64,000 nucleotides of DNA from the IMG/VR virus record IMGVR_UViG_3300042691_037870, positions 62,001 through 126,000 of that record. One strand, given 5' to 3'. Positions 55,358 to 59,980 of the stretch are shown here, in pieces. A program made the translations under genes and the position numbers. This stretch comes from a virus. Positions within the stretch are counted from its first letter, which is position 1; every line of letters starts with the position of its first letter. The notes under the pieces are model-generated. The model was not told the origin of the DNA and did not search any database. It saw only the letters and a program-made list of their open reading frames with translations.

Positions 55358-57964
55358 TTAGTCCCACCAGACCCATTCATTAATATTATAATCCCAACCA
55401 TCTTTATTAACTGTCTTTGTAATATAAGTAGTGGGTGTGATTGCGTATGTAATTAAATCAGAATTAGATTCTATGCCTAATACAACATAAACTCTATCAC
55501 CAGAAACTCTCAAGCTATATAAATAGTCAAAGTCGGTTGTAATAGTTTGAATTAAGCTTCCTTCAATATCATATACATCTATTACATACTTATTATCGTT
55601 TTCTGCATCCGGCCAGGCATTATAAAGATGTGTTTTATTTAAGTCATACTCACCCAAGAACCCATTAAGTTGAACTTCTGCAGGAGGTGTCACATCTGAG
55701 GATAATATATATGCTTCATCTTGACTTATTATAATAAGAGTATTTCCATCTCTATGATAGTCAATATAATTAGTGTTAAAATTTCGATATATATCAATAA
55801 AATCAGCAGTTCCGAGCTGAGTGATTGTGTTTCCTAACGATCCTTGTGCTGAATTCCACCAATATGTTAAATTCTGACTGTAATCAGCCATATAAAAGGT
55901 ATCATAATTAGTACCCCAAAAATTATTTGTAGTAGTCCAAATCCAATCATCATCTATAAACCCCTCTTGTTGAATATCCCAAATTCCCCAGAATTGTGTG
56001 TTGGGTGCTTGACTATCATCATTATGCGTTAGTAGAACATATTCATCTCCAAGTGCAACAGTATTAAAATAAGGACCTGTACTTTCATAATTCGTTACTG
56101 TCTCTATTAAATCAATACTACCGTTTTGTTTTAACTTAAGCAATTGTAATTTAGTAGAATCTGGAAAATTCACATAAAGTAAAAATGGTACAGCAAGTCC
56201 ATCATCATTTGTAGATAACCCAAATGTTGTAACTTCTTTAATATCTATTGTGATATTATCAATAGGAGCAGAACCACCAATCATATCTCCCATGATTATT
56301 ACCTGATCATCAGGGCTGTATCCGTTACCCATTGTATTTACTGCAATTGTGGAAATATTTCGATTAGAATCAGTAACCACATCAAATGTTACCGTATCTC
56401 CTGCAAAACCGGTAGGGTTTATTACAGCAACATTTGTGTAAGTCTGATTTTCTCCGTATGGCCCAGGATTTGCTGGCAGAGGTAAGATAGGATCAATCTG
56501 AAGAACTCCACCAGTTTCAGGTTCATATGAATATAGTTCACCTGTAACTGCATTAGACCAAATTATTTTTAGAGGAAAATATCTAGTCATTCTCCCGTCA
56601 GACATACTATCTTTATAAATACACACTGCAAAAGATTCATCGCCAAATGGTGATGGCGACCAAGAAGAAAAACTTTTAAGCGAATTAGATTGAATTTCTT
56701 GATAACTACCGTAGACTTTATTATAATCAAAAGATATAAACCAGCAGCCAAGATCATCAGGATTAATACTTATAATTGTGTCATCTAAACCGTTAGCATC
56801 CGCATGTAGCCATATAATTAATTTATTTGTACCGATTAACCATTCTTGCTGGACAGTATTAGCATTATATACTGAAATATCAATGTCAGTATATGTGCCA
56901 TCAGTTTGAATTATTCTTAAGGTTTCTACGCGTTCTCCTTGGAATACAACTTCTTGCTCTTCGGAGCTACCCTGGACGTTTTCATTTATAGTAATAGTTG
57001 TGCCATCAATATCAATTACATAGGGAGTTAAGCCTGTAAAAGTACTAATATCTGGGATTGCATATCCTATTTTAATTTCTGGATTAGGCTCGAGTAATGT
57101 TATAAAATTATCACCCTCGTTATAAGATACAGTACTTTCTGTACTACTTTCTTCTCCTATTACAATATACATAAAATTACCTACACTTTTCAGCCCATTA
57201 CCGTAATCAGGACCGAGAATATCCGTAATCTCTGTTATAACTCCTGTATGTGCATTAACTAAGTAAGTTCTTGTTTTTTCAAGAACAGTATCGTAATAGT
57301 AAATAGAAAATGTTCCATCTATTGTACAGCTATCCCAACTAAACCAATCATAGTATACATACTCATCACTAACGTTATTAAAAGTTTCTGTGTAAATCGT
57401 ATCTCCTCCCCACCATTTAAGGGTTACTAACCCGGATATTGGGTCTGTGTATGATAATAAAGAAGCAAATCCATCTAAAGAACCATTGTTACGTGATGAA
57501 TTACCAATATTAACAGTTTCTATAAGATTTCCACCTGCATCTATGAAGTAAAAAATTCTGTTATTTGAAGAATCAACTTTTTCAAAGATCCAGCCTCGGC
57601 CTTCAACCAGTCCTGTAAATTCCAAGTCATTTACAGATGTATAATCAGGGTCAAGTTCAATCTCTTCGCTAAAAGTTAAATTGTCATAATTAACTATAAA
57701 GAATTTAAGAGCACCTGATGAAAGATCTTCATAATAAACAGCTACGTGTTTTGCACTAATAACTTGTGCTTGCGGATTAACATTAGCAGAACCTCCCCCT
57801 CCAGCACCTCCGCTAGAAGATTGTGATTGTGATTGTGATTTCATAGCAGCCTCCCATAGCGCTTGCATTTCTTCTTCTTCTTGAAGCAATCTCCACTTGC
57901 GTTCAAGTTCAGATTGGTTAATACTTAAGTTTCTATGTCTATCAAAGAATTGATCTTTTCTCAT
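55358..57964 (-). CDS. Large beta-rich tail fibre or receptor-binding structural protein
   Basis: 868 residues. A charged helical N-terminus is followed by a Ser/Gln/Gly linker (MKSQSQSQSSSGGAGGGGS), then repeated strand-turn units rich in Y, W, D and T of beta-propeller style (VNAHTGVITEITDILG, SNAVTGELYSYEPETG, WDIQQEGFIDDDW). A segment AVNTMGNGYSPDDQVIIMGD resembles the G-x-x-Y-rich repeats of the protein at the left edge. It has no enzyme motif. A role in host contact is inferred from composition and linker design. Confidence 0.6.
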   Translation of the reverse strand: MRKDQFFDRHRNLSINQSELERKWRLLQEEEEMQALWEAAMKSQSQSQSSSGGAGGGGSANVNPQAQVISAKHVAVYYEDLSSGALKFFIVNYDNLTFSEEIELDPDYTSVNDLEFTGLVEGRGWIFEKVDSSNNRIFYFIDAGGNLIETVNIGNSSRNNGSLDGFASLLSYTDPISGLVTLKWWGGDTIYTETFNNVSDEYVYYDWFSWDSCTIDGTFSIYYYDTVLEKTRTYLVNAHTGVITEITDILGPDYGNGLKSVGNFMYIVIGEESSTESTVSYNEGDNFITLLEPNPEIKIGYAIPDISTFTGLTPYVIDIDGTTITINENVQGSSEEQEVVFQGERVETLRIIQTDGTYTDIDISVYNANTVQQEWLIGTNKLIIWLHADANGLDDTIISINPDDLGCWFISFDYNKVYGSYQEIQSNSLKSFSSWSPSPFGDESFAVCIYKDSMSDGRMTRYFPLKIIWSNAVTGELYSYEPETGGVLQIDPILPLPANPGPYGENQTYTNVAVINPTGFAGDTVTFDVVTDSNRNISTIAVNTMGNGYSPDDQVIIMGDMIGGSAPIDNITIDIKEVTTFGLSTNDDGLAVPFLLYVNFPDSTKLQLLKLKQNGSIDLIETVTNYESTGPYFNTVALGDEYVLLTHNDDSQAPNTQFWGIWDIQQEGFIDDDWIWTTTNNFWGTNYDTFYMADYSQNLTYWWNSAQGSLGNTITQLGTADFIDIYRNFNTNYIDYHRDGNTLIIISQDEAYILSSDVTPPAEVQLNGFLGEYDLNKTHLYNAWPDAENDNKYVIDVYDIEGSLIQTITTDFDYLYSLRVSGDRVYVVLGIESNSDLITYAITPTTYITKTVNKDGWDYNINEWVWWD

Positions 57965-58008
57965 TAGATTTATTTTTTTCTATATATCTTTAACAGTATT
58001 ACATAAAA

Positions 58009-58030
58009 AGAGGTCCCAATTGGGACCTCT
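58009..58030 (-). terminator. Terminator after tRNA-like RNA
   Basis: Perfect hairpin AGAGGTCCC-AATT-GGGACCTCT on the minus strand with a T5 run. It begins 2 bases after the tRNA-like RNA and would end its transcript. Confidence 0.9.
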
Positions 58031-58032
58031 AA

Positions 58033-58149
58033 GAGGGCGGCCGGACTTGCATCGGCGGCACGGCTATTTTCCTTCTAAGTACTTTTCTCGAGAACTTTTT
58101 CCTATCAATGAAGTACTGGAGCTTGCTCTACTACCTGAGCTACACCCTC
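58033..58149 (-). ncRNA. tRNA-like RNA with replaced anticodon arm (Y-RNA candidate)
   Basis: 117 bases. Acceptor-type stem GAGGGTG/CGCCCTC (7 bp, one G-T), TA, D-arm GCTC-AGGTAGTA-GAGC, and a T-arm-like GCCGA-TGCAAGT-CCGGC with a changed T-loop (U54U55C to UGC) and one A-C mismatch. In place of the anticodon arm is a longer stem AGTACTT/AAGTACT enclosing about 26 bases, so a normal anticodon cannot be assigned. No CCA is encoded. Bacterial YrlA-type Y RNAs combine a Ro60-binding stem with a tRNA-like domain and are encoded near Ro60; a Ro60 gene lies at 59980-61608. A decayed tRNA is the main alternative. Confidence 0.65.
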
Positions 58150-58323
58150 TTATAATTTAGATCTTAAAATATCAATTTCTTTTTCAAGACGTTTCTTATC
58201 ACTGTCTGTAAGTGGTATTTTTACATCATGAGTTTTCTTTTGTGTTTTAACTCCACTTTTGAGTTGGTTCTCAAACATTTCTAATGCTCTTACTTGTCTT
58301 GAGCGTTTTTGTGCTGTTGCCAT
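58150..58323 (-). CDS. Small charged protein
   Basis: 57 residues (MATAQKRSRQVRALEMFENQ, ... DKKRLEKEIDILRSKL), Lys/Arg/Glu-rich and helical. Its TAA stop is directly followed by the first base of the tRNA-like RNA, so both would be on one transcript. Function unknown. Confidence 0.6.
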   Translation of the reverse strand: MATAQKRSRQVRALEMFENQLKSGVKTQKKTHDVKIPLTDSDKKRLEKEIDILRSKL

Positions 58324-59260: not shown

Positions 59261-59746
59261 TTAGTTCTTAACAAGAAGCATACTAAATGTTTTTCTTCCT
59301 TGCTCATTTGTCTGTATAGAACATCCTACAAGATTTGCATCTGATCTAATTACCATATAATGACTAGGGCTGTTAATTAAAGCATTAAGCATACTTTGCG
59401 GAGTGTAATAGTTGTATCCTACGCATTCACCTACTCTTGAAGCATTAAGAATGCATTGTATGTTATCAAATCTATCCTGAAACCCTGAATGATTATATGT
59501 ATTATTTTCTATCATCCATCTTGTATGACGAAAGCATACACTACCAATGTGATTATTTGGTATTACATGTGATAAATTATTTTGTATTCGATACGTATTC
59601 AATAACATCATTAATTCATACTCTTCTGCAGAATAAGGATGATATAGTAGGTTATATGTAGAACAATCAGGTTCTGTTCTTTCGGGTTCACTACAAGATA
59701 AAAAAAGACTAATCATAACAAAAAATGTATAGATTAGTCTTTTCAT
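59261..59746 (-). CDS. CAP-domain lipoprotein
   Basis: 161 residues. N-terminus is a signal peptide with lipobox LFLSC (Cys18). After a short spacer, the CAP/SCP domain shows MLLNTYRIQNNLSHVIPN, SVCFRHTRWM, NHSGFQDRF, RVGECVGYN and NSPSHYMVIRS, as in bacterial CAP proteins. Phage-coded CAP lipoproteins are uncommon. A surface or periplasmic role such as superinfection exclusion or envelope change is an inference. Confidence 0.8.
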   Translation of the reverse strand: MKRLIYTFFVMISLFLSCSEPERTEPDCSTYNLLYHPYSAEEYELMMLLNTYRIQNNLSHVIPNNHIGSVCFRHTRWMIENNTYNHSGFQDRFDNIQCILNASRVGECVGYNYYTPQSMLNALINSPSHYMVIRSDANLVGCSIQTNEQGRKTFSMLLVKN

Positions 59747-59773: not shown

Positions 59774-59980
59774 CTAAACATCTTCCCAATTTGCTTCTTG
59801 AACAGTTTCACAAAAAACAAAGATTCCATCTTTCTTGAGAACTTTATCAGCACCTAAGAAATCTTTCCAGGCATTAAATAACTCTCCTTTAAGAGAGCCA
59901 TCACGATTACTTAAGGTGCTGACTTTTATCTCACGGAGAATAACATAAAACTCTCCTCCGTATTGAAAAAGCTGTTTCAT
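59774..59980 (-). CDS. Small protein linked to Ro60 gene
   Basis: 68 residues (MKQLFQYGGEFYVILREIKV), starts on the TAATG overlap with the Ro60 stop. Mixed alpha/beta with a DGIFVFCETVQEANW end. It is translationally coupled to Ro60, so it may be a partner, but no family is known. Confidence 0.65.
   Translation of the reverse strand: MKQLFQYGGEFYVILREIKVSTLSNRDGSLKGELFNAWKDFLGADKVLKKDGIFVFCETVQEANWEDV

What the first reader, a model, noticed from the sequence alone, without database searches (positions are those of the whole stretch)
58033..58149. tRNA-like RNA without an anticodon arm near Ro60: candidate YrlA-type Y RNA
Acceptor stem and D-arm match tRNA very well, the T-arm is present but altered, and the anticodon arm is replaced by a 7-bp stem with a large loop. 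A normal anticodon cannot be assigned. Y RNAs with tRNA-like domains are known from bacteria and phages, usually near Ro60. Here the RNA lies about 1.8 kb downstream of Ro60, after other genes, and ends in a strong terminator.
Basis: partly seen in the sequence, partly recalled or inferred. Interest (0 to 1): 0.82.

Follow-up and report, generated by a model that had tools for sequence, protein, structure and literature searches.

The report
tRNA-like phage RNA without anticodon
A phage carries a small, evolutionarily preserved RNA shaped like a transfer RNA but lacking the part that reads codons; it sits near a Ro60 gene, yet by arm order and sequence it is not the classical bacterial Y RNA that Ro60 binds, and a better Y RNA candidate lies right before the Ro60 gene instead.

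Summary
A 123-nt RNA (58152-58030, minus strand) has a tRNA acceptor stem (extended to 10 bp), D-arm, T-arm and terminator, but no anticodon. An orthologue in another Ro60 phage (L001; near-identical copy L045) has the same length: 44 of 44 bases identical in the D and variable/T regions while 4-fold sites of Ro60 are 50% identical, and 5 base pairs changed on both sides, 3 of them a short helix at the anticodon-stem position. So it is a selected RNA, not a decayed tRNA. The YrlA reading is only partly supported. YrlA and its relatives have the opposite (circularly permuted) arm order and a Ro60-linked module (..GTTACTTC). This RNA has normal tRNA order, and its insert shows no module signal (584 of 2000 shuffles score as well). 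The module does occur in the window, 5' of Ro60 (62120-62072): that is the phage's best Y RNA candidate. In passing: the module sits inside tRNA bodies in many phages and bacteria, in normal and permuted order, often with a matching anticodon arm, on the strand of a neighbouring Ro60 gene. The RNA here is either a derived, anticodon-less relative of those hybrids or an independent tRNA mimic. Ro60 binding is untested.

The parts
58030..58152 (-). tRNA-like RNA without anticodon, 123 nt from first to last paired base
   Evidence: fold z -2.33; descriptor hit; orthologue of the same length in L001; cmsearch with tRNA-hybrid model 43.8 bits, E 2.9e-10 over 14 kb, score mostly from the tRNA body
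58143..58152 (-). acceptor stem 5' strand UAAGAGGGUG, 10 bp with 58039-58030
   Evidence: 2 of 10 pairs changed on both sides between window and L001, 0 broken
58125..58140 (-). D-arm GCUC-AGGUAGUA-GAGC (A at position 18)
   Evidence: 20 of 20 bases of the region identical in L001
58120..58122 (-). 5' strand of the 3-bp helix at the anticodon-stem position (GCU), pairs with 58065-58063
   Evidence: 3 of 3 pairs changed on both sides in L001
58078..58117 (-). 7-bp stem AGUACUU/AAGUACU with 26-nt loop; not conserved in L001
   Evidence: MFE and centroid; absent from the L001 fold
58086..58097 (-). AAGUUCUCGAGA, a 12-nt stretch of the insert identical in L001
   Evidence: sequences side by side; nhmmer alignment
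58063..58065 (-). 3' strand of the 3-bp helix (AGC)
58039..58062 (-). variable region CGUGCC, T-arm GCCGA-UGCAAGU-CCGGC and first acceptor base
   Evidence: 24 of 24 identical in L001 while 4-fold sites of Ro60 are 85 of 170 identical
58030..58039 (-). acceptor stem 3' strand CGCCCUCUUA
58009..58030 (-). terminator, AGAGGTCCCAATTGGGACCTCT followed by T-run
   Evidence: a similar hairpin plus T-run follows the L001 copy (sequence)
58150..58323 (-). 57-codon ORF (MATAQKRSRQ...) immediately 5'; its stop codon is the first three bases of the RNA
   Evidence: frame read; 70% identical protein directly 5' of the RNA in L001/L045; no PHROG match
59980..61608 (-). Ro60 (TROVE) gene
   Evidence: Pfam TROVE E 2.8e-07, PHROG 850 E 6.7e-46
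62072..62120 (-). stand-alone Ro60-linked module, Y RNA candidate: CGTTCTTACAATACATTGTCACGCTTGAAGCGGTTGTTAGGGTTACTTC
   Evidence: profile 11.4 bits, 0 of 2000 shuffles as high; aligns with 12 relatives 5' of their Ro60 genes
62221..62234 (-). CATGTATATATAAT, promoter-like, about 100 nt 5' of the stand-alone module
   Evidence: only exact copy in the window; the 25 sites with up to 3 mismatches equal chance
61825..61897 (-). second, divergent module candidate (..TTCCGAAGCGGGATTGGGTGTTACATC) between the first and Ro60
   Evidence: seen by eye, motif located; not scored separately

Best explanation
A phage-encoded tRNA mimic under strong selection. It is probably transcribed with the 57-codon ORF and released at its own terminator. 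It folds as a tRNA body whose acceptor stem is lengthened so that 5' and 3' ends are paired, and whose anticodon arm is reduced to 3 bp carrying a partner-binding domain of about 55 nt. The likeliest origin is the family of Ro60-linked tRNA/Y RNA hybrids of large phages in normal arm order; this copy has lost the anticodon and any recognisable Ro60 module. Most likely it acts as a stable tRNA decoy or as the tRNA-like arm of an RNP (with Ro60, PNPase or another tRNA-binding protein), not in decoding. Shown: existence, structure with compensatory changes, conservation, lack of anticodon, neighbourhood, lack of a module signal. Inferred: transcription unit, descent from hybrids, mimicry, partner.
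For: Orthologue of equal length with 44 of 44 conserved body bases and 5 double-changed pairs. No anticodon arm possible in either copy. 10-bp (window) and 14-bp (L001) acceptor pairing unlike decoding tRNAs. Only tRNA-like element found in the phage record. Both known copies lie 3' of Ro60 on the same strand, 1.8 and 3.9 kb away, next to the same small ORF. The best match outside the orthologues is a tRNA-Gln-like hybrid, L147, matching along nearly the whole length (E 0.0023, database of selected loci). Hybrid RNAs with the same layout lie beside Ro60 in other phages, e.g. crAss001 and L030.
Against: The insert carries no detectable Ro60 module (584 of 2000 and 1910 of 2000 shuffles score as high for window and L001), so descent from the hybrids and Ro60 binding rest on layout and neighbourhood only. 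Two lineages are few. Among the 43 viral Ro60 loci only L001 has the orthologue. No expression data.
Confidence: 0.42

Rival explanations
1. An independent tRNA-derived RNA with no tie to Ro60: a tRNA-like 3' element of the small-ORF mRNA (stability, processing by RNase P) or a decoy for a host or defence enzyme.
For: Small ORF stop codon abuts the RNA in the window and the same ORF precedes it in L001; no module signal; 1.8 to 3.9 kb from Ro60 with unrelated genes between.
Against: The RNA and Ro60 stay on the same strand and within 4 kb in both phages although the genes between them differ; similar layouts recur beside Ro60.
Confidence: 0.33
2. A Ro60-binding Y RNA in normal arm order whose module has diverged beyond sequence recognition.
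For: Other Ro60 phages have Ro60-linked modules in this position of a tRNA body; the window insert retains GTTCTC and a ..GTACTTAG box reminiscent of TTCYC and GTTACTTC (by eye).
Against: Profile score at chance level in both copies; a good module already exists 5' of Ro60.
Confidence: 0.15
3. Classical YrlA.
For: tRNA-like, near Ro60.
Against: Arm order opposite to the YrlA model; no RF02553 match.
Confidence: 0.03
4. A decayed tRNA or decayed hybrid tRNA.
For: No anticodon; altered T-loop and D-loop.
Against: Equal length, 44 of 44 conserved body bases and double-changed pairs between two phages whose 4-fold sites are 50% identical.
Confidence: 0.03
5. A functional tRNA with an intron.
For: Many tRNA bodies with an insert in these phages regain a perfect anticodon arm when the insert is taken out in the calculation.
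Against: No such solution for the window or L001 RNA; altered 18/55 positions; acceptor extended to 10 and 14 bp.
Confidence: 0.04

Closest known systems
YrlA (Rfam RF02553), tRNA-like Y RNA of the bacterial Ro60 (Rsr) RNP
   Same: tRNA-like body with acceptor, D- and T-arms; neighbourhood of Ro60
   Different: YrlA is circularly permuted, with a closed acceptor hairpin and a Ro60 stem formed by its 5' and 3' ends (PMC8394870 passages). Here the acceptor is open, the arms are in normal tRNA order and the Ro60 module is not detectable
tRNA bodies with a Ro60-linked module in the anticodon stem (normal order), found here in phages including crAss001 and HGTV-1
   Same: same arm order and same place of the insert; Ro60 phages
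   Different: those carry the module ending in GTTACTTC and often a matching anticodon arm; this RNA has neither
tmRNA
   Same: tRNA-like body with the anticodon arm replaced by other structure (recalled)
   Different: no tmRNA match here
[quoted passage not shown]
   Same: the stand-alone module 5' of Ro60 in the window may play this part
   Different: concerns 62120-62072, not the RNA of the finding; sequence not compared with YrlB

Membership tests
YrlA (RF02553) | arm order: Y stem - T-arm - closed acceptor hairpin - D-arm - Y stem | tested here: not met
   order read from the model alignments; the window RNA has the order acceptor - D - T - acceptor; no permuted RNA found in the window
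YrlA (RF02553) | covariance model match | tested here: not met
   none at gathering, none at E up to 10 on 57900-58300, 0 candidates in the phage record
YrlA / bacterial Y RNA | Ro60-binding stem module | tested here: not met
   profile of 22 inserts: 0.4 bits, 584 of 2000 shuffles as high; a sequence test only, and that the module binds Ro60 is inferred from linkage
YrlA / bacterial Y RNA | encoded near Ro60, same strand | tested here: met
   1831 nt 3' of Ro60; 3.9 kb in L001
YrlA / bacterial Y RNA | binds Ro60; tRNA-like part modified by tRNA enzymes, cut by RNase P or bound by PNPase | not testable with these tools
   needs bench work
functional tRNA | anticodon arm with U33 and R37 | tested here: not met
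   no solution, with an insert taken out in the calculation; ARAGORN 0
functional tRNA | 7-bp acceptor, canonical T-loop and 18-55 pair | tested here: not met
   10-bp pairing (14 bp in L001), A18 and G55 in both copies
hybrids: Ro60-linked module in the anticodon stem | tRNA body in normal order with a long insert at the anticodon stem | tested here: met
hybrids: Ro60-linked module in the anticodon stem | module P1 - TTCYC box - GTTACTTC box in the insert | tested here: not met

The most novel reading that the evidence does not exclude
Ro60-linked Y RNAs of phages and bacteria are tRNA genes interrupted in the anticodon stem (mostly after position 28) by the Ro60-linked stem, in normal or circularly permuted order, and many still encode a matching anticodon arm, so that the Y stem is, or once was, a tRNA intron and Ro60 belongs to a tRNA-processing pathway. 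The window RNA is an end point of that series which has lost both anticodon and module and works as a pure tRNA mimic.
Probability: 0.22. Interest if true: 0.9.

Novelty: new variant of a known kind. Interest (0 to 1): 0.58.

Why it matters
It adds a strongly selected tRNA mimic in normal arm order to the Ro60 neighbourhood and names a better Y RNA candidate for the same phage, so both can be tested against one Ro60 protein. More broadly, the comparison turns up a sequence signature (..TTCYC .. GTTACTTC) linked to Ro60 across phages and bacteria and shows tRNA/Y RNA hybrids in two circular orders with anticodon arms that match more often than in exon-swapped controls. That makes the origin and role of bacterial Y RNAs, and their link to tRNA processing, directly testable.

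Tried and rejected
Rejected: YrlA (arm order, no model match); tmRNA (no match); decoding tRNA or intron tRNA (no anticodon arm); pseudogene (conservation). The T-arm sequence GCCGATGCAAGTCCGGC alone in viral contigs gave 7 stretches: the two already known contigs (L044 is the contig of L001; L045) and five unrelated ones, L262-L266, so no third orthologue. The D-arm plus T-arm pattern gave only those same two contigs.

Led nowhere: Rfam hits at E up to 10 (three chance-level matches); the fold of the stand-alone Y region (z -0.47); a shared promoter motif (25 sites, shuffle mean 24); an in-script constrained fold of the window RNA, whose constraint had no effect on the result. The covariance model alignment has the module stem in two registers, so the 43.8-bit score of the window RNA reflects mostly the tRNA body; many ordinary-length tRNAs score as high or higher. 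Results against my wider reading: RtcB, expected if inserts were spliced by it, is found in only 4 of 39 module or Ro60 records and not in this phage. Of 16 loci from the scan meant as further controls for Ro60 linkage, 9 had Ro60; they were picked by a pattern containing the module box, so I do not count them as controls. In one search, 34 of 55 descriptor hits gave a good anticodon arm; the 21 others include evident chance hits. Of 118 phage occurrences of the module box before a T-arm, 40 fitted neither order, and 49 of 135 bacterial ones. Some loci are the same contigs as Ro60 loci (for example L030 and L131), so the sets are not fully independent. L044 was dropped from the scripts as a duplicate of L001.

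Full report
What is there. On the minus strand, 58152-58030, a 123-nt RNA can form a tRNA body: acceptor UAAGAGGGUG/CGCCCUCUUA (10 bp), UA, D-arm GCUC-AGGUAGUA-GAGC, a long insert, variable region CGUGCC and T-arm GCCGA-UGCAAGU-CCGGC, directly followed by a terminator at 58030-58009. The fold is better than shuffles (z -2.33; 3 of 200 as good). A tRNA descriptor with an over-long gap between D- and T-arm finds it and finds nothing in base-shuffled copies of the same loci. ARAGORN, Rfam tRNA and Rfam YrlA do not see it. It is the only tRNA-like element found in the 126,447-bp phage record.

It is under selection. One of 43 viral Ro60 loci, L001, has an orthologue (nhmmer E 3.4e-15), and a pattern scan adds L045, nearly identical to L001. 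Window and L001 copies are both 123 nt between the same end pairs. The D region is 20 of 20 identical and the variable region plus T-arm 24 of 24, while 4-fold sites of the two Ro60 genes are 85 of 170 identical and the proteins 417 of 540. On the pairwise alignment, 5 of 22 pairs are changed on both sides and stay paired: 2 in the acceptor and all 3 of a short helix at the anticodon-stem position; sliding the partners by 1-3 columns gives 0. With two sequences only, 19 of 500 column shuffles reach the same count, so the equal length and the identical body weigh more.

It is not a decoding tRNA. No combination of bases on either side of the insert gives an anticodon arm with U33, R37 and at least 4 paired positions in either copy. 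Positions 18 and 55, partners in the invariant G18-psi55 pair (tRNA numbering and pair recalled), are A and G in both copies. The end stem is 10 bp here and 14 bp in L001 (sequence).

Is it a Y RNA? Bacterial Y RNAs (YrlA) have a stem made by their 5' and 3' ends that binds Ro60 and a tRNA-like domain, and tether Ro60 to PNPase (PMC8394870, passages; PMC7790460, passages). The primary papers (Chen 2013 and 2014, Wang 2018, Sim and Wolin 2018) were not read: look-ups of three of them failed. To find what marks Ro60-linked RNAs, I looked for sequence shared by noncoding RNAs near phage Ro60 genes. Searches show a module: a stem P1, a TTCYC box, a short hairpin, a (GAAGCGG or GTGGTGTAG) box, the second P1 strand and GTTACTTC. 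Its linkage to Ro60 was tested with loci fetched by RNA patterns alone. Of 201 viral loci, 108 hold a Ro60 reading frame in the fetched stretch. Of 45 viral records selected by descriptor plus motif, 29 have Pfam TROVE. Of 120 bacterial loci, 84 hold Ro60. Of 11 control phages with a plain tRNA-Asn, 0 do. In the phage set (101 loci, 53 with Ro60) 64 of 64 and in the bacterial set 97 of 97 counted RNA/Ro60 pairs lie on the same strand; loci without Ro60 in the fetched stretch give no such pair. That the module binds Ro60 is an inference from this linkage.

In the window this module lies 5' of Ro60, at 62120-62072 (11.4 bits, 0 of 2000 shuffles as high), and aligns with 12 relatives at the corresponding place (13 sequences chosen from the hits). 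It is not detectable in the insert of the finding's RNA (0.4 bits, 584 of 2000 shuffles as high) or of its orthologue (-1.2 bits, 1910 of 2000). The arm order is also wrong for YrlA: the Rfam model aligns module-bearing bacterial RNAs as Y stem, T-arm, closed acceptor hairpin, D-arm, Y stem (7 matches of 32-45 bits in 8 loci, under the curated cut-off of 69). So the YrlA label fails the features that were tested, and the phage has a better Y RNA candidate. Ro60 binding by the finding's RNA remains untested.

Where it may come from. The same module is found inside tRNA bodies. In normal order it interrupts the 5' strand of the anticodon stem, mostly after position 28; examples are crAss001 (L057), three tandem copies in L043, L030, and HGTV-1, whose annotated tRNA-Asp with intron re-reads as tRNA-Gln(CUG) with the module inside. 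In permuted order it forms the two ends, as in YrlA (16 hits in the 59 sources scanned, 0 in shuffles; the three of L043 may instead be read as neighbouring normal-order copies). A complete anticodon arm can be put together in 26 of 40 phage normal-order RNAs (exon-swapped controls: mean 13.1, at most 18 of 40), 70 of 102 phage permuted ones (mean 39.4, at most 45) and 34 of 65 bacterial permuted ones (mean 11.4, at most 16); 8 bacterial normal-order ones are too few (4 against a mean of 2.6). The closest non-orthologous match of the finding's RNA is such a hybrid (L147, E 0.0023 in a database of selected loci). I therefore give descent from a hybrid about even odds with an independent origin. 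The most novel reading, that Y RNAs are split or permuted tRNAs, was not found in the searches, but the core papers are not in the library, so this is no claim of priority. PMC12282133 (passages) suggests Y RNAs for abundant RNAs near an Rsr-like gene of a Listeria phage; PMC7824862 (passages) notes TROVE proteins in jumbo phages with a tRNA-like partner in cells; PMC7765460 (passages) mentions a Ro60-like protein in a Vibrio phage; PMC8058203 (passages) describes the Ro60-Y RNA-PNPase complex.

Mechanism. Most likely the RNA is a stable tRNA mimic. Whether the partner is Ro60, PNPase, a tRNA enzyme or a host nuclease is open. PMC7790460 (passages) raises the idea that the YrlA tRNA-like domain could act as a competitive inhibitor of an anticodon nuclease; by inference, an RNA without an anticodon could do the same for enzymes that read the tRNA elbow. 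RtcB is absent from this phage record, so ligation by a phage RtcB is not part of the explanation.

Noticed in passing
L043 7112-7630, L057 6084-6226, L030 9140-9270, L061, L191 and others: tRNA bodies interrupted in the anticodon stem by a Ro60-linked module ending in GTTACTTC, often with a matching anticodon arm; 29 of 45 records carrying them encode TROVE.
   Followed up: partly
L176 about 1883, L254 about 5017, L058 about 7473, L059 about 7247, bacterial loci such as L287, L303 and L326: Circularly permuted tRNAs (YrlA order) with the same module at their ends; 70 of 102 phage and 34 of 65 bacterial ones allow a complete anticodon arm, above exon-swapped controls.
   Followed up: partly
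L049 4923-5054 (HGTV-1, KC292026): Annotated tRNA-Asp(gtc) with intron re-reads as tRNA-Gln(CUG) interrupted by the Ro60-linked module after position 28; the virus also has TROVE and RtcB.
   Followed up: partly
window 61708-62234: Gap of about 690 nt 5' of Ro60 with one clear and one divergent Y-type module and a promoter-like site; relatives have one or two modules at corresponding places.
   Followed up: partly
L012 9316-9481 and equivalents in L017, L018, L022-L026: A noncoding stretch of 166-174 nt conserved between tRNA-Arg and tRNA-Pro in Ro60 phage tRNA arrays, of unknown nature.
   Followed up: no
L001 6674-7591: A 305-aa reading frame inserted directly after Ro60; it resembles a homing endonuclease by eye and its last residues resemble the end of Ro60.
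   Followed up: no
window 59261-59746: Phage-encoded CAP (cysteine-rich secretory protein family) domain protein with a lipoprotein-like start, between Ro60 and the RNA.
   Followed up: no
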